Shown here one piece after another: positions 9,294 to 39,358 of a DNA stretch of 64,000 bases. A program made the translations under genes and the position numbers. A model generated the notes under the pieces. The model made no database searches and was not told the DNA's origin. It saw nothing but the letters and a program-made list of their open reading frames with translations. Source of the DNA: Desulfosarcina sp. (GTDB lineage: Bacteria > Desulfobacterota > Desulfobacteria > Desulfobacterales > Desulfosarcinaceae). The stretch's first letter is position 1; each line of letters starts with the position of its first letter. The DNA lies in NCBI GenBank assembly GCA_014237405.1, contig JABZFO010000163.1:1-64000 (forward strand). The letters run 5' to 3'.

Positions 9294-12200
9294 TTACTGC
9301 CCGGTTTTTATTGTTTCCCCACTAAAATAGGTTTGCCTGTACCATTTTATCGCTCGGTCCAGTCTGTTCACCTGCCCGGGCGAAAGCGACCCTCTAAACG
9401 CTTTCCGCCGATGTTTCGGGATGCTTGACAGTGGGTGAGCCATGCGGATTGATGTAATCTTCGATCGCGTATTGCCGCCGAGTTCGTAGTATTTTTTCAG
9501 GTAGCGATGAGCGGCATCCAGGTCGCCAAACTTCAACGCCTGCTTGTACCAGTACAGGGCATTGCCTTTTTTGTTCGGCCGGCCGCCATATCTTTTTTCG
9601 TCGCCCTGTTTGGATAACCAGTCGAACACCGCTGAGCGGGTATCATAATAGGACAAGATGCCAGGGTCATTGCGATAGACTATGATCTTTTGCAGGTCGT
9701 TTATAAAATGCTGCGCCGCCTGAACCGCAATCGGAGCGCCAGCGGTCTTGCCCTGAGCCGGTCGGCCTGCAGCCACCCGGTAAAGCGAGTCCAGCTTGAA
9801 TGACCTTAGCGCGTGTTCGACGCGGTCCCTGATAGGCCTCGGCCGTGTAATGTCGGGGTATAGGCTGGACCCGGTGGCAACTTCGGCAAACAGCTTCACC
9901 TCGGGCCTTATGCCTTGGGCTGCGCGGTTCAACAGGGCCTTGGCGGCATCTTGGAGTTTTTCTCCGACCGTGCGCTTGCCCTTAATCAGATCCTTGACGT
10001 CACCTGGCCAGTCTTCCAGGCCGAAGAATGATAAGGCATCGGAGAGAGCCCCTTGAAATCGCAGGGTCAGTATGGTGCCATCCTCGCGTCTTCCGAGGAT
10101 GATGTGCTGCTGCCGGCGCCCGGACTCGCCTAATTCGCGCTCTTCGTCCGGCCACAACAGGATATTGTAAAGCGCCACCGCGCCCATGAGCATCTGGGCC
10201 CGGAGAGCCAGCTTGCCGGCCGACATGATCATTTTCTTACCGGCGACGGCGGTTGCCCTTTTCTTGACGGATCCAGCGTCGCGGTTTTCATACTTGGTGT
10301 TGCGCATCATATAGACATACCGGGGGGCATTGATCTCAAGCCATGAGTAAAAAGGTATCAGGCGTTTCCGGATCCACTGCCCCGTCTTGGAAATGTTGCC
10401 GTAATCGCCCAGCAGCTCCCTGGCCAGCTTCGCCGATCGCTCGTCAGGATTCTTGACGCCGTCGACCTCGTCTATCTTCGATGCCCCGTAGAGCCGTTTG
10501 TCGGCGTTATCTTCAAAATACCGGTATGCCCCCAGGCGCAGAACGTTTTCACGCCACGCGGTCATGCGCTGGACCCGTGTCCAGTACCAGCCGGCGCCAC
10601 GCCTTAACAGGTTGCCCGTGGGCGGTTCGTGAAGGATCAGCTCTTTAACGACTCGGTCCATGGAAAGGATTTTCAGTGCATCGTCAACCTCCTGGACCGA
10701 AAAACCGGAGCCCAGCACACCCAGCTCACGCGCACGGTCAAGCTCAGCCTGGACCTTCACAGGCAGTTTTTTTCGCAAATGCCAGCGCCACAGGTCACCG
10801 GCGGCATTCTTGGCGTATTTGAGGGCGTCTTTCGGCCCCATATAGGCCATGGCCGCGTCAAGGTCTCCGGACCAGTTATTGAGATTATAGCGCACAACCG
10901 AATACGGGTTCAGGAGTATCCATTGCTTCCAGGACCGGAGCATCCAGTCAGCTGCTTTGCCAATCGCGGACGGGTCGCTGTCGTCCCTGAAATTGTCCAT
11001 GGTATCGGCAAGCCCCTGGGGGATAACCCAAATCAGTTCACGGCCTTTGGCCAGCACTTGCCGGACTTCAACGTCTCTGGCATCGATCTCACCGGCCGCC
11101 ATGCGCTGCATAATGTTGTCGGCGATACTGTTTGCCCAGTACCAGCCTTTGCCGGGTTCTGGCTTCCAGATCGTGTAGTCGTCCGGGATCATGCTCTTAT
11201 ACGTCAGGAAGCTGTTTCCTAAACTGCTCTTTATCATCCGGTCACGGCCCTTGATCGCCTTGAAGATGGTGGCCGCCCAATTGGCGCCCGGCTTCTTCGT
11301 GTTGATCAGGTAGGATAGGAAGTGAAACCACCTTGGGTCGTCAAAATATTCTTCGGCCTCATGGGTATAGGCAAGCTCTTCAACCAGGTCGTCCCACTCG
11401 CTGTCATATTCCAGCTTGCCGTTGACCGCCATAGCACCAAGTCTTTGGTTCGCCATGGCAATATTGACCTTGAAAGGCTTCAACGGATCGTCTTGTTCCA
11501 TCAGCTCCTTGACGGTCATTTGCTGCGCATCGGCCATCATCTTGTAAAAGTTCCTGAGATTGGCCGCCTTGGCAGAGGCCTTCAGGTCTGGGTAAATATC
11601 GGCTTCTTTCTTGACCCGTTTCAGTGTCTCCACCGTTTCGAGCTGTGCCAGCTGCTGTGAAACGGCCATAAACTCGGCTTCGATATATTCGGTGTTGTAA
11701 TCAAGGGGCGAGCCCTTGCGAGCTGCCATCCATGGTCGCCAGTGGGTTCTGACGTCGCCGGATCCGGTGCCCAGCCCGTGCTTAATTCCCATGAACATTA
11801 GGACCTGGTGGTGAAAATAGTCCTTGTCCGCCAGGGTTTCTTTTTTTAGTATTTTGGCGTCTACCAGGCGCCACTTGATGTCATTCACCATGGAGTTACG
11901 ACGATTAAGTGCCTCGGACACTTCGGGGTTTTCGTCGGCCAGGCGCCGGTATCTCTCGGATGCCTCGACGACCTGGTCTACAGTCTCGAAGCCAAAGGGC
12001 AGTTTTTTGTCATGGATCAACCCCTTGTTTGTGTCCCGGACCATGTCGGCCAGGATGATGTTCATGCGGAAAACTTCATACCCGTCCCTGGACAGGTTTT
12101 CTGTCAATCCCTGCAACCTCTGGATGGTCTTATTCTTGACGGTTTCCGGTATCTCCTGGTGTCGCCTGAGAAGGTCGTTCATGCTGGCCCGCAGGCCCTT

Positions 12201-15200
12201 GTCTTTGATCGCCTGGAGTTCCGGGAAGTGGTGGCGTTGCTGTCCGAGTTTTTTAAGCCCGGCCTTCATGCGGTCGAGAAAAGACTCTTTGGGCGCACCG
12301 CGAGACTTGGCCATGCGCGTTTCGACCTCTTTAGGGAGAATATCGCCGGTGTCTATTTTCTTGGTGCTGGCCTTGCGGGAAAACAGCGGCATCCCTTCGC
12401 GCAATGCCCTTTGGCGCATTTCCGGGGTGATGGGTAGGGACCAAACTTCACGTTCAACAGTTTCGGCGTACCCCATTGAATTTGCTTCTCGGTTGTAAAG
12501 ATTGAGTGTCCCAACTTTAGGCTTTCCCCAAACCTTCTTACCGAAAAACTTGTTTGCAGCGGCAGGTAGTATTTTGTCGTAAAAGCCGGCCATGCCAGTA
12601 TCTGAAATGGTTATATCGTCGCCCTCAATCACGCCTGACTGTTCAGGGTTATTGATAATTGAATCGCCCATCGATTTACCAATAGCGTCGCTGACGGCGG
12701 TTTCTTTTTCTAAAGTATTGACAACTTCCCCGCCATTTTTAAAACCAACAATCTCGATGCCCGCTTTGGTTTTTGTCCACTCTATTTTATCGACCGCTTG
12801 GCGAAGTGCTTCTTTGTATCGTTCAACTTGCATTTCTCCGGTAGTCCATGCAATCTTATCGCACCCGTTTTCGGCGGCATAGCGAACCATGCGTTTCATT
12901 ACCAACATGGACCAATTTTTGGAGAGCTTGAAGGGGGCGTTGGGGACGGTGCCTTGCAGAGCCCGTACTTCCATGCCACGCAGAGCATCCCATCGGGTTC
13001 TTTCTTCGTCAGTCCATGATCTATCCGGCTTTCCGGTAAACTGCATCGACCCATCGCCGTCTAAATTCGGTGCGGGGGTAAGTCCGATGTCCTCTATCAA
13101 CTCCTTCATCTGTTTGTGAAGATTTAAAACATCACCTTTATACCCTTCCTTCCGTCCCGCCTGATGCCAGTCACTCTGTACTTCTTCAAGAAACAACACC
13201 CGATTACCGTCAGCGTCAGTCCTTTCATTGAATCGGACGTGTGCAAGAATGTTGGGTTCGTCGTAATGGGTGGACTTGTAAACCTTTGCCAATGCCTCTT
13301 TACTTGGGGCATCCTTTCTACCAGGATAATACCAAGACGGTGGAGGCAGCGTCAGCAACAACTCCTTGTAGTTTTCACCGCCCGGAACCACATAGCCGGA
13401 AAATTTCGTATCGAGGGAGATGTCCTCGTTACCCTCGGTGCGGATTACTTCCCGAACCTGAACATGGTGCGCCGCCAGGTAATCAAGGACTGCCTGTTTT
13501 GATACTATCCAGTCTGTCTGAGCCCAGTTTTTCGCAAGCGCTTCTTTATGCCGCGCAATCTTTTCATCAAGCCATTCCAGCAACCCAGACCACGCAAGCT
13601 CTTCTTCTTTTATCAGTCCCTTTTTCACCCAGGACTGCAAGGCCGACTTGATCTGTTTCGGGGTGCCGTTGGTCAGCTTTTGCTCCAGCACCCTGACCAT
13701 TTGGCTATACCAGCGCTCGGCGGCCTTATCGGAGGAAAACGCCGGCGCCGTGCGGATACGCCTTGCCGCCGTCTTTGGCCGTCGATTACCGCCGGTCACA
13801 TGGCGCCTTGCACCTGCCAGCAGGCTGCGGATCTCGGTGTCTGAAAACTTCAGGTTCGGATCCAGCTTGCGGATAAACGCACGAACGGCGGCGACAACTC
13901 GGTCCACCCATCCGGATTCTGCACCGCGCTCAATCTCTCTGGCAAGCCATTCGTCAGCGGCCAACAGTCTGCCGTCTTCCGTTCTGACATCGAAGCCGTA
14001 TTCATCGGCGATTTTCTGGATCTCCGGGCGTTTCGCAATGTAAACTTCCTTGAGGACCCGCACGATGTTCTTGCCCAGGACACCCCGAACGCCATAGTGG
14101 CCAAAGGCCTCATGGAACAAAACCTCATATGCCTGTTTGATTGATGTTATATTGTCGGCCACAATGTAAATGCGACCTTTGTTGTAAACACCGCCGACAA
14201 TGACAGCACCCTTGCCGTCTTGCTCAATGGCAGCGATTTCCCTCAAAATGGGTTCGGGCAGCTCTGCCTGGTGTTGGACAACCCGGATACCCGGAGCATT
14301 CGTCCAGGTGGCAGAAATTAAGTCTAATGCAGCCTGGATGGCAGCAGCCCTGAGATTGGATCCCGATGCCGCCGGCCGCGCTGAAAAAAGGGTGCGCTGC
14401 TTATCAACAAAAAGTTGTTTTTGGCCGCTTATTCGGCTGTTTTTGGGTAGTTTTTTGGATCTTTCGGTTCTATCAGTTTTACGGGCGGGGTGTTTATCTT
14501 GCAGGGCATCGTCGGATACGAAACCTCTTGTGGCGTTGAGGTAACTATCAATTTTCTCTTCGAGGACTTTTCCTTCATGGTATGACTCATAACGATAGGT
14601 CTCAATGAGTTCGCCGAGCTGGTCGGCAATGACCGACCGGACTTGCTCAACAGCCTCGGCCAGTTGTTTTTTTGTACCGCGCTTTTTAATATTCGTCAAG
14701 ACGGTTTTAATCTGCCTGGGAGTAGCCGCCGCCTCGTCAATTTTGTCCATGACACTACTCAGGGCTCCGGCCACCGGTCCGGGAACTTCCGGGAGGTCAA
14801 CTATCCCGGCATATTTGCCATAAATGCGCCGGCGGTAAATCAGACTCGGGTTAAGGTATTCCTCCTCGGAAATTTCTCGAGCCTTGCGTCTCGAAAAGGC
14901 GGGCCTGTCAAGGCGAGCGCCACCGGAGGGGGCATCGACTCTGACGAGCGGATGCCGTCGTATGATGACTTCCAGAATATCGGCAGCCTTGTCGTTGTCC
15001 GGCAGGAAATACCTGTTTTCATATTGGATGTTTTCTACTATCCCGCCACTTTCCTGAAACCAGTGGAGCATACCCCAACTAAGGCCCCTGATCTCGACCC
15101 GGTCTTCTCCTGAGACGTTGGACCGAAGCAGTCGCCATCGATCGGCGAGACGCACGGTAGCGTTCTCATTCATCACCTTGGCGACAAGATCGGTCGCCTC

Positions 15201-18200
15201 GTATTTGACTGCCGCCTGAGAAACGCCCAGGGCGTCAAGGGTGTCGGAGACATCGTCCGGATGAACAACACGGCCTATGTACCGTTCGCCCTTGTCCGTG
15301 CGGACCCGGTTGATTCTCGCTGTCCCGCTGATGTGGTTCCAGATTGGGAGAAGGTTGCCGGTCAGCAGGTGCAGGTCTTCTGTGACAGTCTTGGGCAGTC
15401 CCTTGGCCTCTTCATTCCATATCTTCTTGGCCTCTTTTTCGGTCAGGTTCCACCATTTATCGCCGGTAAGCTCGTTGACCAGCTTTCGCTGTGTGGTTCC
15501 CTTCGGGCTGACCAGGGACCGGTAAAGCTCCGGGTTGCCTGAACTGTTCGTGCGCTGCCTGTCCTGTGTAGCAGACCATATCCGGCCGCTGGCGACGTTT
15601 TGGTAATACCCGCCATGGTTGGGGTAAAACTCTTTCGAGTTGGCAAACAGAACAGTCCTTGACGGGCGTGTCAACTCAACCCGAACATAATCTGTTTTAG
15701 CGCCTGTATCCTTGTCTGTATGGACTGTTTTTTTCTCGGCGGTCACGATTTTGTCGGCCGTGACGGTTTCGATCCCGACGTCAAGAGTGCCGGCGTCGGC
15801 GTACTCCTGCACAACCGCATCCATGTGGTCAGAAAAGGCCTTGAATACCGTATTCTGGCCGTCGATATTCATTGAGAGAAGTCGGTTCAAGAACTGCGTC
15901 ATTGACGGCGGGTTCTCGTCGTCCAAGGATAGCCCGGTTTGCGCAGAAAACTCTTCTGCCGAGATGCCTTCGACCCTGTCCAGATAGAAATTATCCAACA
16001 GGCGATGCAGGGCGGCTGTGGCATAGATGCTTTCAAGATTGTCTCGGGCCTGAAATATACCCTGGGATCCTGTTTGCCGCTGGCCTTTGGTCAGCGCCCC
16101 CAGTTGGTCAAGGCGTCGGGCAATGGAGCTGATGAAACGGACCTGGGCTTTTAGGTCGGTCTGAACCAGGATGACTTCGGGTGCGCTGGCCTGATTGGAC
16201 CGGTGTGTCCGTCCAAGGCCCTGAACGGCCTTATCTGCCCGCCAGCCGGGTTGTACCAGATAGTGCTTGCGGGGCCGCCGGTTAATCCTGGTGTTGTCGG
16301 CGTGAAAACTGCGCCCGGTGGCGCCCTTGCCGGAAAAAACCAATATCTGCTTTTTATCGTCCTGAAAAGCGTCAACGTCTGCCGCAACATGCTTATTCGA
16401 CCGGCGCTCGGTAACTAGTCTTCCCTCTTTTTCATCCATGACCAGCCGGCGTGATCGACCGGTGACCTCTGCCACGTTTTCGGCACCCAGTTCCTCGATC
16501 AGGAAATCGAGCGGCCCATTGGGCATGGTGATAGAATTGACCCTGATGATAAGGGCATCGCGCATGGCCTCGGCTTCGCGGTTGATGACCGGCTCCCCGT
16601 CGCTGTCATACACGGGCCGTTTGCGGATATTACCGTTTTCGTCCTCATACTCCTCATACTGTATGATCGGGAAACTTCTTTCCAGATAGTTGATCAGGTT
16701 TTCCCTCGGGGTCATATCCAGGTCTTCAAGCTCTTGATCCTGCCGTCTTCCTGATAGCGCCCGGGTCAAGTTCGCCTCCCCGGTGCTGACCATCTGTAGA
16801 ACAACCGCATGGCCGCTTTTAATGTCCTCCCTGATCCGCTTTACCACGCTCGGCATAGCCAAGGTGGTGACGATGGTGTTGAAAAACCGCTGTTGTGCGC
16901 CCCAAAATGCGGAGTAATTGGCACTCTGTTTAGACGATTCGGTAAGCTCTACTGCTTCGCTAATGTTCTGCAGCACAATCTGCCAGGCGCCGGCCAGCTC
17001 GTCGTATTTACCACTCTGCTCGGCTGTCAGGGGGTGAACCAGGCGATCATATTTAACGTCGGCATAGGAAAGGGACCGGGCCGTATATAAGCCCAGGCTT
17101 TTAAGGTTCCGGGCGATAAGCTCCATGGCTGCCATACCGCCGGAGCTTATCTGGTTGACAAAGTCGACCCCGCTCGAAAACGGGGTTTCCTCGCCCCACA
17201 ACCCCATGCGCTCAGCATATGCAAGGTTGCTGACCTCTGTTGCGCCGGTGGCCGAAACATACACAATACGAGCATCAGGCAGGCGGTGCTGAAGGTGTAT
17301 GCCGGCCAGGGCCATCCCGGACGGCGGCTTCGCCCCCCTTGATCCAGCCTGAGTCATGGCGTTAGCCATATTGTGTGATTCATCGAAAGCAATGACGCCG
17401 TCGAAGTCCTCACCTAACCAGTCAACGACTTGATTTATCCGGATCTCAAGGTCTGTGTATGATCCGGGCTGATCTTCCCTTATATTTTGATAAGACCCCG
17501 TGCCGACCCCGCGCATAGTGTGGTAACTGGCAAACAAAATACCTTCATCGGCTTTGATCTGGTTTCCGGGTTTGTACTTGTTCATGGGGAGTAGGCTGTC
17601 GGCGCCTTCGGGCCATCCAACAGACGTCAAGTCGCGCTTAGCATCGGGGACAAGGTCAAACGTCTCGGACACCCAGACCGCTTTCTTGCGGCCCCGGTTC
17701 CAGTTGTCCCAGATGATACCGGCGATTTCCCTGCCTTTTCCGACACCGGTGTTATCGCCTATAAAAAACCCGCGCCGCTCACCGCTGGGGAGTTTCTTTT
17801 CGTGAGACGCGCCGGCGTAGCTGATAGCCTCCAGCTGGATGTCCGACATATTTCCGGACTTGATGGCAGAGAGTGGTAATTTAGGAATGTAGTTGATTTT
17901 AGGTGGGGCCGTGTCGGCCATGGCCACGGATTCGACCAATGGCGTTGGATGGGGTGCGGCCCCCTTGATCGTAACTATGGGCCGGTAGGATTCGAAAACA
18001 GCATCGGGGATTTCGTCAACATCGGCAGGGGTTAGGTCGGCATCTCCCCGTACAAGATCACTCCCTCTATCGCCGTCACTATCTCGTTTGCCATCAATAT
18101 CGGCGTCTGAAGTCGGCCCATCCCCGCTTTCGTCCACCGGTCCAGGCCCACCGCCTTGATCAGCCGGTTCGGGTCCTGGTTCAGGGCGAACAGAATCGCG

Positions 18201-21200
18201 GTCTCCTGGTCTGGGCTCAGCTGGTCCGGCCGTTCCTCCAGCATCCACGCCAGCATCCCCATGCACGGCGGGCGTTGTGGCGCTGGATACAGGTGATTCT
18301 GAATCAGGAGTCGATGGCAGAGTCGGTCTATCGGAAGGTTGTATCTCTTTTCTGGCATTTCGCACCCCCTTGAGGATATTAGGCAGATCCTCGAAGTGTT
18401 GAACGGCAGCCGTTAACTCAGTATCAGTCGTCGGGCCGGTTTTGTCAATAACAAGTACCTGATTATCAAAAGTCGTGCCATATTTGCGGTAATCGTCGCC
18501 GGCAATGCTGACATTGGCCAGCACGTTGTATTTTGCCCGGATCCGGTCCCACCACTTTGTAAATGTCGGCCGATCGTGGGCCATGCCCCGGCCAACTATG
18601 GCTACCAGGCGACCACCAGGTTCCAGTCGGGCTAGGGCCTGTTCGATGTGCTGGGCGCCATACTTGGTTTTGTTGCGGGAGACCCGGCCAGCGGTTGACG
18701 AGAACGGCGGATTCATTACAATTACGGTCGGCTGAATGCTCCGGTCCAGAATATTGTCCAGTTGTTCGGCGTTCTCGGTGGTGACCTGGTCGAAGCCCTG
18801 CCCCTCCAGTAGTCCGGCCCGTCGATTTGACAGTTCGTTGACATAAACCTTATCGGCCACCTGCTTGGCGAACACGGCAATACCGCCGACACCGGCCGAC
18901 GGTTCGAGATAGATGTCATCTTTTTTCAGATTCGCCACCCAGTTAACGGCATAGGCCAGGCCGGGCGGCGTCGAAAACTGCTGGAACTCAATTTGCTCCC
19001 TGGTTCGTTTGGTTTGAGTCGGGAGGATAGATTGAACCATTCTGACTAATCCTCCTACTGAAACCCCAGCTGCATGGGCGTCGTCGACGGTTGGCACATA
19101 GACACCCCGCTTATTCATGCCGCTGATGTAGTCGTTGACTCCGATTTCAACCGCATCATAGGCGTCCTTCGGCGTGTAGACACCCTGCGCCTGTGTCCCG
19201 GACCATGCTTCGTTTGCCTGGGAGAACAGTTCCCGCCAATCAAAGGCCTCGTTGGATTTCAGCTTCCCTACCACCCACGCCGACAGTTTCGGACTGCCGG
19301 TAAGCTCTTTTTCCGGCAGATCCTCCGATTTTTCGGCCTTGGGGGCCGGCGGTTCAGGCTTGGCCTTCGCCGCTTTCGACTTGTACGGCTCCACCTTGTC
19401 CTCGGTTATAAAGAATCTCCCATCCTCTCTTGTCATTATCGGGACGTTGTTAGGCTCGTCAGAATAATAGTCCTGGGTAACCGTGCCGGTGCGTGTGTTC
19501 CCTTTAGAATCAACGAACCTTACCTTCTCACCGCGTTTGTAGAGAGGTTCTCTTTTCTGTTCTGACTTTTGTTCTTTGGCTGGCTCCTTCTTTTTTGATA
19601 TGTCTCCGACCGGCTTCGTCTGCTTGCCGCTTTCGAGCCAGGTTCTCAAATCCTCCAGGGGCATTTCGGTAATATCCCCAAGCCCGGTCCAGCCCTTTTC
19701 ATAATTGGAAAGGTACAGCTTTTTGGCGGCATCAATCGACTCGGCACCGAGAATTACTTTATGCTCGTCGAATTTGCCGTCCTCATTAACCTGGTCGACG
19801 ACAAAGGCCCTGGGGTTTTTCTCCTGGTCCAGATCCACAAATACGTCGACGTGATCGCCGTCCTTGCCCTCGGACCGGAGAAAATATCCATAATGGCCAT
19901 GGATAGGCGTTTCCCATTTTTTGCCATCAGGGGAAACGCCCGAGCGTACAGACCCGTCCGGGTTCTCGACGGTGATGTCGAACCCGTGGGCCTGGATGTG
20001 CCCCATTTTATAATTGCCGGCCTCTTTCTGTGCATCGGTCGGTTCAGGAAGAACGTTTTCCGGGGAAGTCGCTGCCTCGTTGGCTTGCTCGTCGATGTCG
20101 TCTGGTGAAATTTCGTCGGAACCAATATCCTCGGCCCGGATCTCGACCGTCTGCGCCGGATCCAGGACAACCTCCTCAGACTCGCTTCTCACCTTAATCC
20201 CATCGCCGAAGGGGTCATATTCGGTTACGGTATATTCGCCGTACTTTCCACCGATGACCAGTCCAACGGTTTTGCCCTCCGGGATCTCGCCGGCCGATAT
20301 TTCTTTATAGGCGCCGTCCTTCCCGTAGTTCGGCGGCTCTTCAAGGGGTTGCTCGGAGGACGCATCGATCTTGGCCTGCTGCTCTTTCTGGTACTTCGTC
20401 TTTGCTTCTGCGTCTAGGGATCCCCGCCTCAGTTCTTCGGGCCGATCTGATAGGATTTCGGTCAAATCCTCGGACGGCAGCATCCACCCTTCTGCGACCA
20501 AGGCCCGTTTTGCTTTTTCGATCTCAATCCCATCTGCCTTGAATATGCCTGCCTTATTCGCGTCGTCATGGGTCGCGGTGAGGTCTTTTTTAAGATTACC
20601 AGGATTGATGCCACCCATGGCCCGGATCGCGCCGCCGAGAGTCGTGGGCTCCGGTCCTTTTTCAGGCTTGATCTTGGCGACGGTGTTCCGAAAATCAAGT
20701 TCCCTGTCGATAATCTCGGCAAGGTCATCCCTGTTATCATGCTTTACTTGAGCCTTAGCCCGAAGCAGGTCCTCCGGCGTCGCCTGGCCGATAGGCTTTC
20801 CGGCGGCCTTGGCGATTTCTCCGAGTTTGACACCATGAACGGCCGAGCTGGCTTCCTCTTTCGATGGCGCCTTTTGGATCCCCATGGCGGTAGCAACGAC
20901 GTCGGGGTTCTCTTTAGCGAATTTTCTCGCTGAAGGTACACCCTCTTTAACCATTCGGTTGCTGGCGATTTCCTGCTCAGTCAAGATTGCCTGGGCCGAT
21001 TCTTCAGCGGACTTGCCGGTGGTGGCGGTCAGGTCATCGATGGCCTTCTTTTCAGCCTCTTTTTTGGCGACACGGTCGGCCTCGTCAAGATGTTCTTCGA
21101 ATACCGCTGCCGATTCATCGGCCGGCTTTATACCCCTGTCGATCAACTCCTGACTTAGCAGCTCGAGGTTTTCCGCCTGTTTTACGGATAAATCTTTGCG

Positions 21201-22646
21201 GGCGGCCTTGGTCTTCTTTAGGTTCTTGGTCCGGGTCAACAACTGCTTGTCGGTGAGTTTTGCCAGCCATTCCGGCTTTTCGGAAGTCTCGGCGGCGGTC
21301 TCCTGGGTGGGCAACGTTGGCGTGTGTGTCTCTGGTTCCGTTTCGGCCAGGTCTTCGTCCGAAAATGCGGCTGCGGTCTCTTCCGCGTCGAGAGAATCGA
21401 CGGTCTCTACGGTCGGAACATTAGGGCCTGTCTCTGGTTCCGGCTCAGATTGCCCGGTAAGCAAGTCCTTGGCCGACTTGTCCTCTTCACCAGGGCTTAA
21501 AAGAATATCCCGTGCATCCATTCCGGCGGTGACGGCGGTGCCAGGGGCGCCCATGACGGTGAAAGCAAGGGCCGATTGTTTGGCTGTGTCCACAAGCCGG
21601 TCAATGACCTGGTCACGGGTAACGGCAGGAATATTGCTGTTGCCCATCGATCGATCGACTTCTTTGGCCACCTCGCCCATAAGGAGGTTCGTCGATTCCT
21701 GCAAAAGCTCCTGGGCGGTTTCCGCGGCAATAAACCCACCATACTTAGCTGCCGTCTTTAGGGCCAGCATCTTGAGCGTGCCGCTTTTCATGGCCTTGAC
21801 CATGGCCTTGTTGATGGATCCGGTAAGAAGGGCCTTGCCCCCAGGGATCGTCTTCAATAAAAGTCCGATCTGACCGAGCTCGATCGCCCCATTCACGATA
21901 CCGACGGCTCCGGCCGCGGCCTTGGCGATATTCGGGTCAAGGCGGTTACCCTCGGCATCCTTCATTTCAAGCAGTTCGTCGTAGGCAAGTCCCGCCTCGA
22001 TTCTGCCAATATTTTCAAGGGATCCGGACACCATGCCGACCCCGTACATACCGGCAAACACGGCGGGAACGGTGATGATTTCCTCTGGAAGGGCCGCCTG
22101 TGGTCCGGCCTGGCCGGCTACGGCTGCAATCGCACCGGCGCCCATGCCAAGGGCAAGGCCTTTCTTTGTTCCCTCGGCCATGCCGCGGAGCATGATCGGC
22201 GCCATTTCGGCCGATGCGGTCAGGGCTTGCTCGAAAAGACCACGCTCCTCGGTGTCTCGCTGGGGCATGGATTTTTTCAGGTCGGCGACTCGGTCCCTGA
22301 TTTCGGGTGTGTCGTTACCCAAAAGCTGTTCTGACCGCAATATACCCAGTTCGGTTTGCAGTTCCCCCGTTTCCCACGCATCACCGACCCGGGAGAACAT
22401 GGTGTCAGGCTTTTCCTCAGTGGGAACCTCTGCGACCGCCGGCGGGGGGTTAGGATCTGCGCCGGCAACCATGTAAATAAACTTATCCCGGATCCGGCCT
22501 TGCTCCTCGTAATCCAGCTCGAAGAACTCGTCGTCGGCCATGTTGACATCAAAGTAATCCTCCAGCTCAGCCCGTTTATCGACATGCGGTAGGCCGGAAA
22601 ACTCTTTGTTCTCTTTGAACTGGTCTATTACGGCGGAAAGAGGCAT
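9294..22646 (-). CDS. Giant polyvalent virion protein (methyltransferase, SBNO helicase, peptidase-like)
   Basis: A 4450-aa uninterrupted frame covering 13.3 kb. Visible regions (residue numbers approximate): Gly/Ala-rich hydrophobic stretch 160-215; low-complexity charged linker 380-860; inorganic-pyrophosphatase-like polyvalent domain 875-975 (HGHYGYF, DHVDVFVD); adenine methyltransferase 1215-1400 (LEPSAGVGG, VMNPPF); strawberry-notch-type SF2 helicase 1590-2230 (Walker A GDNTGVGKGRE, FDESHN, GLGRTHRSNQ); metallopeptidase-like HEAFGHYG near 2847; polyvalent-associated domains around 3150-3340 (LEEVQSDWH, IAWTTGEMQ); C-terminal helical part with a hydrophobic helix near 4155. Known relatives such as P1 DarB and other polyvalent proteins are packaged and injected to protect incoming DNA. 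Its place after the internal virion genes supports injection. Confidence 0.88.
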   Translation of the reverse strand: MPLSAVIDQFKENKEFSGLPHVDKRAELEDYFDVNMADDEFFELDYEEQGRIRDKFIYMVAGADPNPPPAVAEVPTEEKPDTMFSRVGDAWETGELQTELGILRSEQLLGNDTPEIRDRVADLKKSMPQRDTEERGLFEQALTASAEMAPIMLRGMAEGTKKGLALGMGAGAIAAVAGQAGPQAALPEEIITVPAVFAGMYGVGMVSGSLENIGRIEAGLAYDELLEMKDAEGNRLDPNIAKAAAGAVGIVNGAIELGQIGLLLKTIPGGKALLTGSINKAMVKAMKSGTLKMLALKTAAKYGGFIAAETAQELLQESTNLLMGEVAKEVDRSMGNSNIPAVTRDQVIDRLVDTAKQSALAFTVMGAPGTAVTAGMDARDILLSPGEEDKSAKDLLTGQSEPEPETGPNVPTVETVDSLDAEETAAAFSDEDLAETEPETHTPTLPTQETAAETSEKPEWLAKLTDKQLLTRTKNLKKTKAARKDLSVKQAENLELLSQELIDRGIKPADESAAVFEEHLDEADRVAKKEAEKKAIDDLTATTGKSAEESAQAILTEQEIASNRMVKEGVPSARKFAKENPDVVATAMGIQKAPSKEEASSAVHGVKLGEIAKAAGKPIGQATPEDLLRAKAQVKHDNRDDLAEIIDRELDFRNTVAKIKPEKGPEPTTLGGAIRAMGGINPGNLKKDLTATHDDANKAGIFKADGIEIEKAKRALVAEGWMLPSEDLTEILSDRPEELRRGSLDAEAKTKYQKEQQAKIDASSEQPLEEPPNYGKDGAYKEISAGEIPEGKTVGLVIGGKYGEYTVTEYDPFGDGIKVRSESEEVVLDPAQTVEIRAEDIGSDEISPDDIDEQANEAATSPENVLPEPTDAQKEAGNYKMGHIQAHGFDITVENPDGSVRSGVSPDGKKWETPIHGHYGYFLRSEGKDGDHVDVFVDLDQEKNPRAFVVDQVNEDGKFDEHKVILGAESIDAAKKLYLSNYEKGWTGLGDITEMPLEDLRTWLESGKQTKPVGDISKKKEPAKEQKSEQKREPLYKRGEKVRFVDSKGNTRTGTVTQDYYSDEPNNVPIMTREDGRFFITEDKVEPYKSKAAKAKPEPPAPKAEKSEDLPEKELTGSPKLSAWVVGKLKSNEAFDWRELFSQANEAWSGTQAQGVYTPKDAYDAVEIGVNDYISGMNKRGVYVPTVDDAHAAGVSVGGLVRMVQSILPTQTKRTREQIEFQQFSTPPGLAYAVNWVANLKKDDIYLEPSAGVGGIAVFAKQVADKVYVNELSNRRAGLLEGQGFDQVTTENAEQLDNILDRSIQPTVIVMNPPFSSTAGRVSRNKTKYGAQHIEQALARLEPGGRLVAIVGRGMAHDRPTFTKWWDRIRAKYNVLANVSIAGDDYRKYGTTFDNQVLVIDKTGPTTDTELTAAVQHFEDLPNILKGVRNARKEIQPSDRPTLPSTPDSESPVSSATTPAVHGDAGVDAGGTAGPAEPRPGDRDSVRPEPGPEPADQGGGPGPVDESGDGPTSDADIDGKRDSDGDRGSDLVRGDADLTPADVDEIPDAVFESYRPIVTIKGAAPHPTPLVESVAMADTAPPKINYIPKLPLSAIKSGNMSDIQLEAISYAGASHEKKLPSGERRGFFIGDNTGVGKGREIAGIIWDNWNRGRKKAVWVSETFDLVPDAKRDLTSVGWPEGADSLLPMNKYKPGNQIKADEGILFASYHTMRGVGTGSYQNIREDQPGSYTDLEIRINQVVDWLGEDFDGVIAFDESHNMANAMTQAGSRGAKPPSGMALAGIHLQHRLPDARIVYVSATGATEVSNLAYAERMGLWGEETPFSSGVDFVNQISSGGMAAMELIARNLKSLGLYTARSLSYADVKYDRLVHPLTAEQSGKYDELAGAWQIVLQNISEAVELTESSKQSANYSAFWGAQQRFFNTIVTTLAMPSVVKRIREDIKSGHAVVLQMVSTGEANLTRALSGRRQDQELEDLDMTPRENLINYLERSFPIIQYEEYEDENGNIRKRPVYDSDGEPVINREAEAMRDALIIRVNSITMPNGPLDFLIEELGAENVAEVTGRSRRLVMDEKEGRLVTERRSNKHVAADVDAFQDDKKQILVFSGKGATGRSFHADNTRINRRPRKHYLVQPGWRADKAVQGLGRTHRSNQASAPEVILVQTDLKAQVRFISSIARRLDQLGALTKGQRQTGSQGIFQARDNLESIYATAALHRLLDNFYLDRVEGISAEEFSAQTGLSLDDENPPSMTQFLNRLLSMNIDGQNTVFKAFSDHMDAVVQEYADAGTLDVGIETVTADKIVTAEKKTVHTDKDTGAKTDYVRVELTRPSRTVLFANSKEFYPNHGGYYQNVASGRIWSATQDRQRTNSSGNPELYRSLVSPKGTTQRKLVNELTGDKWWNLTEKEAKKIWNEEAKGLPKTVTEDLHLLTGNLLPIWNHISGTARINRVRTDKGERYIGRVVHPDDVSDTLDALGVSQAAVKYEATDLVAKVMNENATVRLADRWRLLRSNVSGEDRVEIRGLSWGMLHWFQESGGIVENIQYENRYFLPDNDKAADILEVIIRRHPLVRVDAPSGGARLDRPAFSRRKAREISEEEYLNPSLIYRRRIYGKYAGIVDLPEVPGPVAGALSSVMDKIDEAAATPRQIKTVLTNIKKRGTKKQLAEAVEQVRSVIADQLGELIETYRYESYHEGKVLEEKIDSYLNATRGFVSDDALQDKHPARKTDRTERSKKLPKNSRISGQKQLFVDKQRTLFSARPAASGSNLRAAAIQAALDLISATWTNAPGIRVVQHQAELPEPILREIAAIEQDGKGAVIVGGVYNKGRIYIVADNITSIKQAYEVLFHEAFGHYGVRGVLGKNIVRVLKEVYIAKRPEIQKIADEYGFDVRTEDGRLLAADEWLAREIERGAESGWVDRVVAAVRAFIRKLDPNLKFSDTEIRSLLAGARRHVTGGNRRPKTAARRIRTAPAFSSDKAAERWYSQMVRVLEQKLTNGTPKQIKSALQSWVKKGLIKEEELAWSGLLEWLDEKIARHKEALAKNWAQTDWIVSKQAVLDYLAAHHVQVREVIRTEGNEDISLDTKFSGYVVPGGENYKELLLTLPPPSWYYPGRKDAPSKEALAKVYKSTHYDEPNILAHVRFNERTDADGNRVLFLEEVQSDWHQAGRKEGYKGDVLNLHKQMKELIEDIGLTPAPNLDGDGSMQFTGKPDRSWTDEERTRWDALRGMEVRALQGTVPNAPFKLSKNWSMLVMKRMVRYAAENGCDKIAWTTGEMQVERYKEALRQAVDKIEWTKTKAGIEIVGFKNGGEVVNTLEKETAVSDAIGKSMGDSIINNPEQSGVIEGDDITISDTGMAGFYDKILPAAANKFFGKKVWGKPKVGTLNLYNREANSMGYAETVEREVWSLPITPEMRQRALREGMPLFSRKASTKKIDTGDILPKEVETRMAKSRGAPKESFLDRMKAGLKKLGQQRHHFPELQAIKDKGLRASMNDLLRRHQEIPETVKNKTIQRLQGLTENLSRDGYEVFRMNIILADMVRDTNKGLIHDKKLPFGFETVDQVVEASERYRRLADENPEVSEALNRRNSMVNDIKWRLVDAKILKKETLADKDYFHHQVLMFMGIKHGLGTGSGDVRTHWRPWMAARKGSPLDYNTEYIEAEFMAVSQQLAQLETVETLKRVKKEADIYPDLKASAKAANLRNFYKMMADAQQMTVKELMEQDDPLKPFKVNIAMANQRLGAMAVNGKLEYDSEWDDLVEELAYTHEAEEYFDDPRWFHFLSYLINTKKPGANWAATIFKAIKGRDRMIKSSLGNSFLTYKSMIPDDYTIWKPEPGKGWYWANSIADNIMQRMAAGEIDARDVEVRQVLAKGRELIWVIPQGLADTMDNFRDDSDPSAIGKAADWMLRSWKQWILLNPYSVVRYNLNNWSGDLDAAMAYMGPKDALKYAKNAAGDLWRWHLRKKLPVKVQAELDRARELGVLGSGFSVQEVDDALKILSMDRVVKELILHEPPTGNLLRRGAGWYWTRVQRMTAWRENVLRLGAYRYFEDNADKRLYGASKIDEVDGVKNPDERSAKLARELLGDYGNISKTGQWIRKRLIPFYSWLEINAPRYVYMMRNTKYENRDAGSVKKRATAVAGKKMIMSAGKLALRAQMLMGAVALYNILLWPDEERELGESGRRQQHIILGRREDGTILTLRFQGALSDALSFFGLEDWPGDVKDLIKGKRTVGEKLQDAAKALLNRAAQGIRPEVKLFAEVATGSSLYPDITRPRPIRDRVEHALRSFKLDSLYRVAAGRPAQGKTAGAPIAVQAAQHFINDLQKIIVYRNDPGILSYYDTRSAVFDWLSKQGDEKRYGGRPNKKGNALYWYKQALKFGDLDAAHRYLKKYYELGGNTRSKITSIRMAHPLSSIPKHRRKAFRGSLSPGQVNRLDRAIKWYRQTYFSGETIKTGQ

Positions 22647-24205
22647 TATCGGACATCCTTCCAGCTGGCTTTCTGTCTGTTGTTGGCTTCAAGGAACGGG
22701 CTTTTCCCTTCGGCGATGCGTTTCTTGGCGTGTTTGGTTGCTTTTTGGGCTATCTCTTTGGTAACCTCCCCGCCTCCGAGAAGATGATTGATTTCATCTT
22801 GTGAGAGTGTTGGGACGAGTGTCGGGATCTCCGTTTCCTTCCCGTCGATGTTGACCCCTATCGAAATCTCAGTGGAGAAACCGCGGCCGTCCGTCCGCTT
22901 CAACTCCCCGAGGAAACCCTTTCCCTTCGGAGTTCCGTCCGCTCTTTTTCCGTATTCGTCCTTATATTTTTCGGCGACGGTCGCGGACATCTTGTTGTAA
23001 ATGTCGACAACTTTTATCGCGTATTTGATTTTTTTCTTTTCAGCTCCGTCAAGCTCCTCTTTGGCGTTGTATTTGACGACCAGCTTAATTGCTGCATCCA
23101 GGGCGGTCTTGCCTTCGTCGGTGAGATTCCCCTCCATGTCGTAAGCGTTCTTGCTGCCAGTGAACGGTTCGAGAAGGAGTTCCAGGTCAGCCTTAAATTT
23201 CTTCTGCTGCTTTTCCTCGGCCTTGGTGCCGGAGGTGCTCCCGGCGGCATCTGCCCGCTTGTTTGCGAGATTGGTCTGAGCTTTAAGATTTTCCCGTTCC
23301 AACGGTGCCTTATCTTTTTTGATTTCGGTGTCCTGCTTCGTCGCCTCGGTCCGGGCTTCTATGTTCTCCCGGCCGGTTTCGGCGCCCTTTTTGTCGGCTT
23401 CCTGCTTCCAGTATGCCGGTGGCCGAAAGTCATGTTCGCCCTCGACTATCTTGCCGGTCTCCTCGTCGAACCCCTTGAGAGTTTTTCCGGTTTTCGGGTC
23501 CTTCCAGGTTTCGCGTAGGATATAATCGCCGGTTTTCCCGACATCCACGAAAGGGACATAAATAGCCTCGGTACCATCCTCGGTTGTCCAGATTTGGTGA
23601 TTAAGCGCATTTTTGAGATTGGTTTCAGATGCGCGTTGCTTGGACTTGTGGTAGGTGTCTTTGTATGCCTTGGAAAACCGCACCGCCATAGTCATGGCCT
23701 CGGCGACGGTAGGCGTCGGCTCTGTAAATTCGGTCTTGCCATCTTCGCCGACAAGGATCATCTGCGAACGGTCCACATTCCCGGCATCGTCCGTGACGAA
23801 CCCCTTAAACTGGTTGCCGTCTGGAAGGTACTGGTAGATAGGCAATAGCGTGTCCATGGCCTCATCACCCCGATGCCTACTCATCAAATATTCGGCCTTA
23901 ACGAGTCGCCCGTCGATATCTGCCTGGTTCTCCCGGCGCTGGGCCTCGTTATTCTCGAACTCAGCGGCCTGAAATTCCTGGTCTGCACGCATACTCTGCA
24001 TTTGCATGGCCGATGCGGTGAGGTGGGCGCGATAGTTGTAATCCTCTTCACCGGAGTTTATTTTCTCCCCTTTTCCAATTCGGTCCAGGTATGCGTCGGT
24101 TTGTTTGCTCTGGTCAATCCGGCGGTTCCACTCAAAAAACTGTGTAATTTGGCGAGCGGCCCGGAACCCATCTTCCATCTGAAATCGTCCTGATGCGTCA
24201 GGCAT
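22646..24205 (-). CDS. Internal virion protein, coiled-coil
   Basis: A 519-aa hydrophilic protein, strongly helical, with coiled-coil segments at about 90-130 and 270-340 rich in Glu/Lys/Gln. Residues about 440-505 contain STEISIGVNIDGKETEIP, LVPTLSQDEINHLL and AKKRIAEGKSPF, a motif I recognise as recurring in phage ejection/internal proteins. It overlaps the start of the giant protein gene by one base (stop/start junction at 22646), suggesting coordinated synthesis and joint packaging. An ATG at 24205 with upstream GGAGATTGAT sets the start. It probably acts as a core or ejection protein. Confidence 0.7.
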   Translation of the reverse strand: MPDASGRFQMEDGFRAARQITQFFEWNRRIDQSKQTDAYLDRIGKGEKINSGEEDYNYRAHLTASAMQMQSMRADQEFQAAEFENNEAQRRENQADIDGRLVKAEYLMSRHRGDEAMDTLLPIYQYLPDGNQFKGFVTDDAGNVDRSQMILVGEDGKTEFTEPTPTVAEAMTMAVRFSKAYKDTYHKSKQRASETNLKNALNHQIWTTEDGTEAIYVPFVDVGKTGDYILRETWKDPKTGKTLKGFDEETGKIVEGEHDFRPPAYWKQEADKKGAETGRENIEARTEATKQDTEIKKDKAPLERENLKAQTNLANKRADAAGSTSGTKAEEKQQKKFKADLELLLEPFTGSKNAYDMEGNLTDEGKTALDAAIKLVVKYNAKEELDGAEKKKIKYAIKVVDIYNKMSATVAEKYKDEYGKRADGTPKGKGFLGELKRTDGRGFSTEISIGVNIDGKETEIPTLVPTLSQDEINHLLGGGEVTKEIAQKATKHAKKRIAEGKSPFLEANNRQKASWKDVR

Positions 24206-29617: not shown

Positions 29618-31447
29618 TTAGTTTGAAATGCCGTGTTTAATGAGCGCCGCATCTATCGTATCGAGCCGGTCGGCCACCTGCCGAGCCGCCCCCATCAGCA
29701 ATGACAGCATTATTGTCGTCGATAGGTAGGGCTTGCCGTCATGATCAACCGCGACGTCGCCCTTTTTCCATGACTGAATGATTTTCCCGGCCTCGTCTTT
29801 ATGCTCGCCTGGCTTTTGGTGTTTGTGTACCAACCATGCGGGCAGCGTGGCGTCATCTATCAGCCTCAGTCCGGTAGACGGATCAAAAAGCAAGGATGGT
29901 TTGATGCTCCTTATAACTTCTACATCGTCGACCGGCACAACGGTTTCGCCATCAAGCCGGTCGTCCATATGAAAGAAATCGGCCACATTAAGGCTATGGC
30001 TGGAATAGATATAGTCCCATCTGAGACTGGTGCTTCCGAGGTCATAGGTGGCGGTGGTTTCTGGCAGAATGTCGTTAGCTGAAATACTATCGCAATAAAC
30101 ATTCAACCATCGTCTGGTGGAACTGCCCAGGTCGTAAGAGGCGTCATCATAGGGTTCGGCGTCATCGTAGAAATGGGTTGGCCCCCGCATTAAAATTGAC
30201 GAACTCGCGTAAAGTCCGATTGTGTTCCATTTATTGGCAGCTGCTAAACCGCCAATCGAGAGAGCACCCCCGCTCGTTGTTGTTCTTAGTACAAAATTAG
30301 TTCCACTCCCGGCATCACAACCCATCTCGGCTATCTGTGTCGATAGGTTCTGATAGAACCATCCAATACGAGAGCCATTAAGCGTCCCGCTGGTCATCTT
30401 GACATCCCCGCCGTCTTTAATGACGATGTCTCCGCTTACTCCCATCGTCCCTCCGGAGTTGATGTCAAGACCATCGGTGGTGTTGATTGCAATCTTCCCA
30501 GAGCTGATCGTCAGCGTACCGAATGCCGTGCCCTTTAGCTCACTGGCTGTTATCGTGGCCGACGCTATTTGGCTTGCCGTGATTGTGTTTGCCGCAATTT
30601 CAGCTGCCGTGATCGTATTTGCCGCGACGTGGCGGGCAAGAATCGACCCATCCACCACCAATCCGCCATCGATGGCCACCATGGACACGCCATCGACGTC
30701 ACCTGTCAGTAAAATGCCGTGCCGTCGCCAGTTAGCGGTTGTGGTTGGAGCAACACCGGTAATACCTGCGCCGGAGTTGTCATCGATGCAGATATAGGTC
30801 CGGCCGGTGGTCACATAGTAGACCTGGTCGTCTTCATAGTAGGTTGTGGCTGCGGAATAGTTGTCCGGCGATCCGCCCTTGAGCATAGCGATTACATGCT
30901 CGATGGTATCGCCGACGAGGAACTCAGTCAGAACATTGCCGGAAACCCATGCCGAAAAATTCTCCCCTGAAAAATCTACGGCCCGGATCCAGTAGTAATA
31001 ATCCTTATCCTCCAGGTTCAATCCTGTATCGGTCGCGCTCGTAACCGGGTGCGTCGCTATGATGGTACGGGAATAGGAGGTTATGGCGGGCGCGGAGCTG
31101 CCGGCGGACACCTCGGCTATGCGTATCTCGTAATAGTAAGCCCTGCTACTGAGTGATGCTGACCATGATAGCGTGTTCCGGAAGGTGCCCCCGCTCACAC
31201 TAAAAATAGATGGCGGCAGTATTGTTACTTGACCCACGTTACCGCTGCCGTCAGCCCTTGTTATCGGAGTCGCGTATGCCGCCAGAGAGTTGATGAAATC
31301 AGGGTCGACCAGGTCGCGCATTGAAATGAATCTGTCCAGCTCGTTGCCACGCAATCCCTCCCTTGTTTCGAGTAGCTGTCTAACGCTCGACCCGAACTGC
31401 GGAGAACTCGGGGCCGGTATGGATACGATATGGCGATTAGACATCAA
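29618..31447 (-). CDS. Tail fibre/tip protein with FnIII-like and S74-like regions
   Basis: A 609-aa modular protein. Residues about 75-175 look like a fibronectin III domain (LSWSASLSSRAYYYEIRIAE; DYYYWIRAVDFSGENFSAW). Residues 190-245 resemble a small carbohydrate-binding module (YSAATTYYEDDQVYYVTTGR). A repeated TITAAEIA/TITASQIA stretch (about 275-310) follows. Two YDLGS-x-RW repeats (about 440-495) precede a C-terminal region resembling peptidase S74-type chaperone tails, without an obvious catalytic dyad assigned here. The role is probably host recognition. It overlaps the upstream gene by 11 bp. Confidence 0.75.
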   Translation of the reverse strand: MMSNRHIVSIPAPSSPQFGSSVRQLLETREGLRGNELDRFISMRDLVDPDFINSLAAYATPITRADGSGNVGQVTILPPSIFSVSGGTFRNTLSWSASLSSRAYYYEIRIAEVSAGSSAPAITSYSRTIIATHPVTSATDTGLNLEDKDYYYWIRAVDFSGENFSAWVSGNVLTEFLVGDTIEHVIAMLKGGSPDNYSAATTYYEDDQVYYVTTGRTYICIDDNSGAGITGVAPTTTANWRRHGILLTGDVDGVSMVAIDGGLVVDGSILARHVAANTITAAEIAANTITASQIASATITASELKGTAFGTLTISSGKIAINTTDGLDINSGGTMGVSGDIVIKDGGDVKMTSGTLNGSRIGWFYQNLSTQIAEMGCDAGSGTNFVLRTTTSGGALSIGGLAAANKWNTIGLYASSSILMRGPTHFYDDAEPYDDASYDLGSSTRRWLNVYCDSISANDILPETTATYDLGSTSLRWDYIYSSHSLNVADFFHMDDRLDGETVVPVDDVEVIRSIKPSLLFDPSTGLRLIDDATLPAWLVHKHQKPGEHKDEAGKIIQSWKKGDVAVDHDGKPYLSTTIMLSLLMGAARQVADRLDTIDAALIKHGISN

Positions 31448-39157: not shown

Positions 39158-39358
39158 TTAAAACGGGTTAGTGGAAAAAGAGTTCCGGTCTAACACAAAC
39201 CCCTTTCCGGCCCATCCGGGCAGGTTCTCCATGAATAACTGACGGCCATCCGTCAGTCCCCTACAGTTACCCAACATTCCGAGGGGTCGTTTGTTTGCTG
39301 CGACCGACCGGCAGGCCACCTTAAAGGCATGGGAAAACTGTAAGGCCACCACAATCAC
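39158..39358 (-). CDS. Small hypothetical protein after portal gene
   Basis: A 66-aa frame beginning at a GTG that overlaps the portal stop by 4 bp (GTGA), suggesting coupled translation. The C-terminal NCRGLTDGRQLFMENLP and GWAGKGFVLDRNSF stretch is ordered-looking, with aromatic and Gly residues. No known domain. The GTG start lowers certainty. Confidence 0.5.
   Translation of the reverse strand: MIVVALQFSHAFKVACRSVAANKRPLGMLGNCRGLTDGRQLFMENLPGWAGKGFVLDRNSFSTNPF

What the first reader, a model, noticed from the sequence alone, without database searches (positions are those of the whole stretch)
9294..22646. 4450-aa polyvalent phage protein combining methyltransferase, SBNO helicase, pyrophosphatase-like and peptidase-like domains
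It is one uninterrupted 13.3-kb gene, about a quarter of the prophage. Such proteins are thought to be injected with the DNA and to counter host defences. Domain count and length exceed the classical DarB-type proteins I know.
Basis: partly seen in the sequence, partly recalled or inferred. Interest (0 to 1): 0.8.

Follow-up and report, generated by a model that had tools for sequence, protein, structure and literature searches.

The report
Giant multi-tool phage virion protein
A virus of bacteria carries one enormous gene for a protein that bundles several enzymes, probably injected with its DNA to blunt bacterial defences; giants of this kind and size are known, but this one ends in a large, poorly known tail module that many environmental phages share while swapping the enzymes in front of it.

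Summary
Window 9294-22646, minus strand, is one frame of 4450 aa with intact motifs of an InPase, an N6-adenine methyltransferase, a Strawberry-notch (SBNO) helicase and an HEXXXH zincin peptidase. I add a probable GNAT-fold domain (about 3060-3420) and a conserved ~1,030-aa C-terminal module. The gene ends the late run of a Bcep22-like podovirus.

The interpretation (DarB-type polyvalent protein) is reasonable; the claim of unusual size is not. Five of six fetched phages with related capsids carry giants of 4433-5007 aa, and one, JC1 gp69 (4515 aa), was found in purified virions. Two environmental homologues reach 5097 and 5611 aa. Iyer et al. 2017 described the kind.

Less expected is the C-terminal module. 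It reaches no Pfam, PHROG or NCBIfam model and matched no phage record by tblastn, yet recurs in 48 other distinct sequences. In all 44 with an intact 3' end it closes the protein, in frames from 1224 to 5611 aa with differing cargo. Two sister giants, 92% identical over it, differ by the methyltransferase-helicase cassette. Its predicted fold partly matches viral models, some labelled LPD38. I propose it is the virion-loading or delivery chassis; that is inference.

The parts
9294..22646 (-). single 4450-aa gene (polyvalent protein)
21387..22646 (-). residues 1-420, N-terminal region with two hydrophobic stretches (189-208, 246-264); 136-375 matches a PHROG
   Evidence: PHROG 28077, hydropathy, BLAST matches in four other loci, L032 (G454), L047, L063 and L093, weakly in G453
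19632..20036 (-). residues 871-1005, polyvalent-type InPase domain with a DGDxxD acidic motif at 929
   Evidence: Pfam PF18823; motif; 4.5e-27 match to the C-terminal domain of the Pa193 portal
18357..19337 (-). residues 1104-1430, N6-adenine methyltransferase region: TP motif (STPP, 1225), motif I EPSAGVGG, NPPF at 1312
16998..17954 (-). residues 1565-1883, SBNO helicase lobe 1 (GVGK at 1634, DESH at 1755)
   Evidence: Pfam AAA_34, motifs
15765..16514 (-). residues 2045-2294, SBNO helicase lobe 2 (motif VI QGLGRTHR)
   Evidence: Pfam Helicase_C_4, motifs
14877..15749 (-). residues 2300-2590, region after the helicase that travels with the SBNO module in relatives; possibly the wHTH that Iyer et al. 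describe (inference, not tested)
   Evidence: matched in 9 other loci of the table, 25-44% identity
13812..14354 (-). residues 2765-2945, zincin-like metallopeptidase: HEAFGH 2845-2850, candidate third ligand E2899
   Evidence: H2845 12/14, E2846 13/14, H2850 14/14, E2899 14/14 of the rows that cover it; model blocks mostly at pLDDT 90 or more
12387..13469 (-). residues 3060-3420, QSDWHQ domain, probable GNAT-acetyltransferase fold
   Evidence: VIA-align Z 9.6 to 6.6 in the 50 rows shown, GNAT-type by title or recall; Foldseek alone not significant; conserved polar residues
9297..12389 (-). residues 3420-4450, conserved C-terminal module, mostly helical, at the protein's end in all 3'-complete relatives found
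22646..24205 (-). 519-aa gene directly upstream, its stop overlapping the giant's start by one base; homologues precede the giant in G453 and G454
31437..33293 (-). internal virion protein (phrog_511), same late run; homologue upstream of the giant in 4 of 4 relatives checked
36343..37479 (-). major head protein
   Evidence: phrog_334; best isolates 47-52% identical
39355..43482 (-). portal (39355-41517), a small gene and large terminase (41950-43482)

Best explanation
It is a phage-type polyvalent protein of a Bcep22-like podovirus. Late in infection it is made with the capsid and ejection proteins and loaded into the head (inferred from the gene run and from JC1 gp69). The conserved C-terminal module is the shared chassis that docks or threads it in the virion (inferred). 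At infection it is ejected with the DNA (inferred). The zincin domain then trims it into working pieces (inferred from Iyer et al.). The SBNO helicase tracks along the incoming DNA and the attached N6-adenine methyltransferase modifies or shields it, so that type I-like restriction fails (inferred from P1 DarB). The InPase removes pyrophosphate or a defence nucleotide, and the GNAT-fold domain acylates a host target (both speculative). The cargo in front of the chassis is exchanged as cassettes between phages (shown for one sister pair).
For: Domains and motifs. Late-gene context with terminase, portal, head protein and internal virion protein. Counterpart JC1 gp69, the last gene of its morphogenesis module, found in CsCl-purified virions with 51 unique peptides. 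P1 DarB is a head protein that protects DNA in cis and is targeted to the capsid. C-terminal module at the protein end in 44 of 44 distinct homologues with an intact 3' end (4 of the 48 are cut at the 3' end). Cassette difference between sister giants L068 and L074.
Against: No virion proteomics or activity for this protein. In P1 DarB the capsid-targeting signal is at the N-terminus, which argues against a C-terminal signal. P0001 and JC1 gp69 show no BLAST match at E up to 1, so transfer of function rests on gene position and architecture. LPD38, the label on some fold relatives of the C-terminal module, is not detected by Pfam. Of the module's 50 fold hits none exceeds a query TM-score of 0.50 and 12 lie under 0.30; the profile comparison with six isolates' ends gave a probability of 2%. 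Foldseek alone found no significant PDB relative of the GNAT-fold domain.
Confidence: 0.72

Rival explanations
1. It is mainly an ejection motor: the SBNO helicase pulls phage DNA into the cell, and the other domains assist entry rather than counter defences.
For: It lies in the same late run as the phrog_511 internal virion protein. SNF2-clade enzymes translocate on duplex DNA (Iyer et al.). Hydrophobic N-terminal stretches.
Against: Frames with the same C-terminal module but no detected helicase exist, e.g. L043, L069 and L073 of 1224-1248 aa, so a helicase on this chain is not needed in general. Here it is paired with a methyltransferase with intact motifs.
Confidence: 0.15
2. It acts in the lysogen: an orphan modification or defence protein expressed from the prophage to mark host DNA or exclude other phages.
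For: The contig also carries restriction and defence-like genes. Iyer et al. propose defensive reuse of remnants in hosts.
Against: The gene overlaps the stop of the preceding late gene by one base and lies on the late strand. Promoter-like sites in 7500-24500 are near the chance number (12 against a mean of 9.7), which says little either way.
Confidence: 0.08
3. The fusion is an assembly artefact or decaying relic of a metagenome-type draft genome.
For: The genome is in 201 contigs with 4.84% contamination and no 16S rRNA match.
Against: A closed 13.3-kb frame with intact motifs. G454, from IMG/VR, matches at 42-57% identity from residue 7 to 4447 in the same order, except 1038-1111 and 2588-2958, and its contig has the same capsid genes.
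Confidence: 0.03

Closest known systems
JC1 gp69 / Bcep22-like (Lessievirus) DarB-like giants
   Same: 4515 aa, last gene of the morphogenesis module, methyltransferase plus SNF2-clade helicase in the paper's domain table, found in virions
   Different: JC1 has a lytic transglycosylase, LPD3 and a Pfam-recognised LPD38; Pfam finds none of these in P0001. SNF2-type instead of SBNO helicase. No BLAST match between the two
Phage P1 DarB
   Same: Methyltransferase-helicase dyad; antirestriction is the model function
   Different: 250 kDa, N-terminal capsid-targeting signal; P0001 is about twice as long with further predicted enzymatic domains. The sequences were not compared
Polyvalent proteins of Iyer et al. 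2017 (PMC5512222), including SBNO-bearing Methylomonas WP_020485828.1
   Same: Disparate enzymes in one polypeptide; SBNO, InPase, HEXXXH peptidase and GNAT domains all named there
   Different: I could not compare the Methylomonas sequence or check whether this exact domain order is listed in their supplement
G454 giant (IMGVR_UViG_3300037851_001498)
   Same: Same N-terminus, InPase, methyltransferase, SBNO, GNAT-like domain and C-terminal module; head protein 69%, large terminase 62%, portal 61% identical
   Different: 5097 aa; no match to the peptidase region; extra sequence, e.g. between 1310 and 1809

Membership tests
Polyvalent protein, phage type (Iyer et al. 2017) | Several domains of unrelated activity in one polypeptide, often over 2,000 aa | tested here: met
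Polyvalent protein, phage type (Iyer et al. 2017) | Encoded among late genes with a portal-terminase system | tested here: met
Polyvalent protein, phage type (Iyer et al. 2017) | Contains a domain seen only in phage-type members (InPase among them) | tested here: met
   InPase; list of such domains
Polyvalent protein, phage type (Iyer et al. 2017) | Packaged and injected | not testable with these tools
   needs virion proteomics and a translocation assay
DarB-type methylase-helicase dyad | N6-adenine methyltransferase with TP motif and NPP(Y/F) | tested here: met
   STPP 1225, NPPF 1312
DarB-type methylase-helicase dyad | SF2 helicase of the SNF2 clade fused C-terminally, motifs intact | tested here: met
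   SBNO type
DarB-type methylase-helicase dyad | N-terminal LPD36 with GXG(G/A/S) | tested here: inconclusive
   the strict pattern has no hit in 1104-1210, but I had no LPD36 model to hand
DarB-type methylase-helicase dyad | Protects DNA in cis against type I restriction | not testable with these tools
   needs plating of a deletion phage on restricting hosts
LPD38 (PF18857) | Pfam profile match | tested here: not met
   no hit for P0001 whole or in segments nor for four relatives' modules, while the JC1 control scores 1.9e-33
LPD38 (PF18857) | Shared fold | tested here: inconclusive
   50 BFVD models with E <= 0.001, of which 2 are named LPD38 and 12 more 'large polyvalent protein associated domain'; query TM 0.12-0.50; profile-profile P 0.024, probability 2%
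Zincin-like MPTase, HEXXXH set | HEXXXH helix, later helix with Glu, three-strand sheet | tested here: met
   motif and Glu conserved; strands and helices of the model; description in Iyer et al.. Activity untested
GNAT acetyltransferase | GNAT fold | tested here: inconclusive
   VIA-align rows GNAT-type by title or recall, Z up to 9.6, but Foldseek has nothing at E <= 0.001 and Pfam nothing over a cut-off
Bcep22-like (Lessievirus) virion giant | Gene position after capsid and internal virion genes | tested here: met
Bcep22-like (Lessievirus) virion giant | Sequence homology of the giant to JC1 gp69 | tested here: not met
   no BLAST match at E <= 1: it may work alike, but is not filed as an orthologue

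The most novel reading that the evidence does not exclude
The ~1,030-aa C-terminal module is a general delivery chassis: a structural domain, recognisable beyond its own family mainly by fold, that loads and threads giant effector proteins through phage virions, with enzyme cassettes exchanged in front of it much as toxins are exchanged behind secretion domains. P0001 would then be one load-out of a wide delivery system, so far seen in draft genomes of Nitrospirota, Desulfobacteraceae, Acidobacteriota and Pelotomaculum and in many contigs of uncultured phages.
Probability: 0.35. Interest if true: 0.72.

Novelty: new member of a known kind. Interest (0 to 1): 0.46.

Why it matters
Giant polyvalent proteins are common, but to my knowledge it is not settled how such chains are packed, threaded through a portal and cut. 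A conserved end module with short natural versions (frames of 1224-1309 aa) and swapped cargo gives a clean way to ask which part is the address label: the C-terminal module here, or an N-terminal signal as in P1 DarB. If it is the module, it could carry chosen laboratory reporter proteins into cells through phages.

Tried and rejected
Size as the novelty: rejected, because published and environmental relatives match or exceed it. The frame lengths are stop to stop and a little longer than start-to-stop lengths (except G455, counted from its ATG).

LPD38 membership by sequence: rejected; fold only. PDB search of the C-terminal model: 0 matches at E <= 0.001; the second look gave Z at most 4.2 over 50-137 aligned residues in nearly all rows. 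PDB profile search with the module: one hit at 0.18.

Split giant in Itty13: the fetched 32 kb has three large frames (1562, 1153 and 970 aa) beyond the late genes, on the other strand, but none of the three matched JC1 gp69 at 1e-5, so I do not claim it.

Linker motif P.[FY][SAK][RK] as a cleavage site: 41 seen against 16.75 expected in 50 long frames. Modest, chosen after seeing three instances, and many hits are homologous to each other; not pursued.

CCWGG avoidance by the phage: none (177 seen, 158.7 expected). Host naming by 16S: no match in the genome. Exact repeats of 15 bases or more between the left 8.2 kb and the right 20 kb of the contig: none. The C-terminal module as a delivery module in print: the listings of searches (8 papers; none; 12 shown of 44) show nothing that describes it; I read no paper for this beyond those cited, and the library lacks most subscription papers.

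Counts of cargo changes on the tree used 31 of 47 rows, those I took as closed at the 5' end; the 16 others were dropped, and no shuffled control was obtained. Presence was called by BLAST with P0001 segments at E <= 1e-4, which misses remote versions. The duplicates removed are those identical over up to 600 residues before the module's end; near-identical sequences remain.

Full report
What is there. The minus strand at 9294-22646 holds one frame of 4450 aa. The plus strand there is full of stops. Pfam finds an InPase at 871-1005, a methyltransferase stretch at 1283-1354 (just under its cut-off), and the two SBNO lobes at 1565-1883 and 2045-2294. PHROGs adds 17 families, one named DarB-like, matched over the N-terminal, InPase, methyltransferase, peptidase and 3076-3278 stretches. 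Two of the PHROG profiles hit are 4647 and 3925 positions long, so long relatives were already on file. Ten segments covering the parts outside the InPase and helicase reach no Pfam cut-off, even with hits listed up to E 10. NCBIfam lists nothing for the whole protein.

Are the enzymes intact? The methyltransferase has STPP at 1225, EPSAGVGG and NPPF at 1312. The helicase has GVGKG, DESH and QGLGRTHR. The InPase has a DGDxxD motif. The peptidase region has HEAFGH. In an alignment of 24 rows, 14 of which cover it, H2845 is kept in 12, E2846 in 13, H2850 in 14 and E2899 in 14. AlphaFold2 on 24 sequences gave mean pLDDT 71.6 and pTM 0.49 for 2586-3425, with blocks of the peptidase mostly at 90 or more (model residue n is P0001 residue n+2585).

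A fifth enzyme-like domain. Residues 3060-3420 carry EEVQSDWHQAGRKEG and a dense set of conserved polar residues. Foldseek against the PDB gave nothing at E <= 0.001; its best rows were spermidine acetyltransferases and isocitrate lyase 2, at E 0.025 and above. The second look by VIA-align aligned 988 chains, 27 with Z >= 8. The 50 rows shown, Z 9.6 to 6.6, are acetyltransferases, AtaT/KacT/TacT-type toxins, AHL synthases and the end domain of isocitrate lyase 2; most say so in their titles, for the rest the GNAT fold is recalled. The tool warns that Z under 8 can mean only a common arrangement. I call it a probable GNAT fold. Iyer et al. list GNATs among polyvalent domains.

Context. To the right on the same strand lie small and large terminase, portal, major head protein, a phrog_399 structural protein and a phrog_511 internal virion protein, then other genes up to the 519-aa gene whose stop overlaps the giant's start. 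The head protein is 47-52% identical to those of Itty13, CSP3, DC1, JC1, POI1126, Pavtok, LASTA and others in the 30 rows shown of 203 records. I fetched six of these records. Five have an annotated giant: JC1 4515 aa, POI1126 4841, Pavtok 5007 (by its coordinates), LASTA 4433 and Atu_ph08 4877. In JC1, POI1126, Pavtok and LASTA it follows the late genes on the same strand; in Atu_ph08 it lies on the other strand to most of them. Itty13 has no such single gene in the 32 kb fetched. In JC1, gp69 was seen in CsCl-purified virions, 51 unique peptides and 15.61% coverage, and makes up 22.1% of the genome (passages of PMC9144972). P0001 has no BLAST match to JC1 gp69 at E up to 1; its only good matches among the five giants are the InPases of POI1126 and Atu_ph08. 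The SBNO dyad here and the SNF2 dyad of JC1 are thus comparable cargo, not shown to be orthologous. A tyrosine integrase lies at 60147-61262 and an S24 repressor at 49139-49792, so a prophage is likely, but no attachment repeat was found.

Relatives of the giant. In 50,697 phage records, tblastn with the first 3000 residues matches 613 records, none over 80% of the query; most of the 40 rows shown match at the InPase. The last 1019 residues match none, nor do two relatives' modules. Residues 3001-3431 were not searched there. In IMG/VR the same C-terminal region was found at 38-61% identity in four contigs, whose giants measure 4081, 5097, 5611 and 3468 aa. In whole genomes it is rare: with the last 1019 residues 2 of 60 relatives match, one being the window's own. 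With residues 2740-4450, 6 of 395 genomes of the phylum match; one is the window's own, four match by the peptidase or GNAT-like part, and one (G176) by the module.

The C-terminal module. A scan with the five-sequence alignment gave 48 IMG/VR loci and 6 loci in named draft genomes: Ca. Magnetominusculus, another Nitrospirae bin, Nitrospira, an Acidobacteriota bin, Pelotomaculum and a Desulfobacteraceae bin. With four earlier loci that makes 58 records, 48 distinct after removing duplicates. Of these 48, 44 have an intact 3' end. In all 44 the module ends within 136 aa of the stop, in 42 within 50. The 28 frames closed at both ends run from 1224 to 5611 aa, two of them longer than P0001. Sixteen more are open at the 5' end of the stored stretch. 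Cargo differs: methyltransferase, SBNO, InPase, peptidase and GNAT-like segments are each matched in some members only, and one member has a MuF_C domain just before the module (L044). On a tree of the module, P0001 groups with L063, L008 and G454 (SH-aLRT 97%), of which only P0001 and G454 show the methyltransferase and SBNO segments. The fewest changes are 7 for the methyltransferase (8 carriers among 31 rows), 4 for SBNO (5), 7 for the peptidase (8) and 5 for the GNAT-like domain (9), without a shuffled control. L068 and L074 are 92% identical over the module, 86% over 793 columns further N-terminal and 69% over 633 columns between. In one gap L074 has about 1,625 residues, which hold the methyltransferase-SBNO cassette, where L068 has about 660 (L074 is open at its 5' end). 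That is direct evidence of cassette exchange or loss.

What is the module? AlphaFold2 with 47 sequences gives a nearly all-helical model, pLDDT 73.9, pTM 0.64. No PDB relative was found. In BFVD, 50 viral models match at E <= 0.001, the best at 4.7e-28; 43 of them align over 1,000 columns or more, 2 are named LPD38 and 12 more carry another 'large polyvalent protein associated domain' name. Query TM-scores are 0.12-0.50, so the likeness is partial. Pfam LPD38 finds JC1 at 4196-4401 (1.9e-33) but none of the modules tried. Profile-profile comparison with six isolates' ends gave P 0.024, probability 2%; the Itty13 row in that set is not shown to belong. My reading is a remote, extended relative of the LPD38 end region; by rule I do not file it as LPD38.

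Mechanism. Shown: one chain, intact motifs, late context, conserved end, a cassette difference between sisters, and virion presence of a counterpart in JC1 (published). Inferred: packaging of this protein, injection, self-processing, DNA protection, and the roles of InPase and GNAT. P1 DarB carries a capsid signal in its first 30 residues (PMC9024508, passages), so an N-terminal signal is a live alternative to the C-terminal chassis. The N-terminal 420 residues of P0001 are matched by BLAST in only four other loci of the table, though many frames there are cut at the 5' end.

Against what is known. Iyer et al. 2017 (PMC5512222: abstract, sections 6, 8, 11, 14, 23 and 29 and passages seen) describe polyvalent proteins with 2-15 domains, SBNO helicases 'in a few instances', InPases, HEXXXH peptidases, GNATs, and a 12,242-aa plasmid protein. 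P0001 is a new member of that kind. The constant C-terminal module with exchangeable cargo is the part I did not find described, within the limits of an open-access library and of listings only.

Verdict. Observation confirmed, interpretation partly supported, new member of a known kind, interest 0.46. The novel case is the delivery chassis, probability 0.35.

Noticed in passing
window 2780-5730: An EcoRII-type restriction-modification set: C5-methyltransferase with HTH (2780-4054), Vsr mismatch endonuclease (4038-4514) and EcoRII with both domains near full length (4501-5730), left of the end of the late run.
   Followed up: partly
window 50987-61262: Between an S24 repressor (49139-49792) and a tyrosine integrase (60147-61262) lie a metallophosphoesterase, a weakly LmuB-like protein, a ResIII-type helicase and a DUF5131 protein; possibly prophage-borne defence.
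   Followed up: partly
L005 5958-19671 (C126 about 64957-78670): Right of the window: PrimPol/helicase-like protein, type I methyltransferase, PDC-S02, type I specificity subunit and a SIR2-HerA pair. No type I restriction subunit among the best rows for the six L005 proteins tested.
   Followed up: partly
window 25933-28089: 718-aa protein with a right-handed beta-helix match in the late run, perhaps a tail spike.
   Followed up: no
P0001 residues 1034, 2582, 3420: A P-x-[FY]-[SAK]-[RK] motif sits near module junctions; 41 against 16.75 expected over 50 long frames. Could be a linker or processing site.
   Followed up: partly
PDB 9b41 chain L, residues 632-763: The portal of Pseudomonas phage Pa193 ends in the same InPase-type domain; residues 529-765 have no discernible density (PMC11042391 passages).
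   Followed up: partly
L006 15618-16178 (G016:C4): A genome of the host's own family holds a 187-aa frame, 52% identical to P0001 4320-4447: a lone end of the module, probably a remnant.
   Followed up: no
G402:C8 and G290:C1 (L037, L041, L038): Two other genomes of the phylum carry open frames of 4955 and 4268 aa with the GNAT-like or peptidase segments but no match to the C-terminal module in the table.
   Followed up: partly
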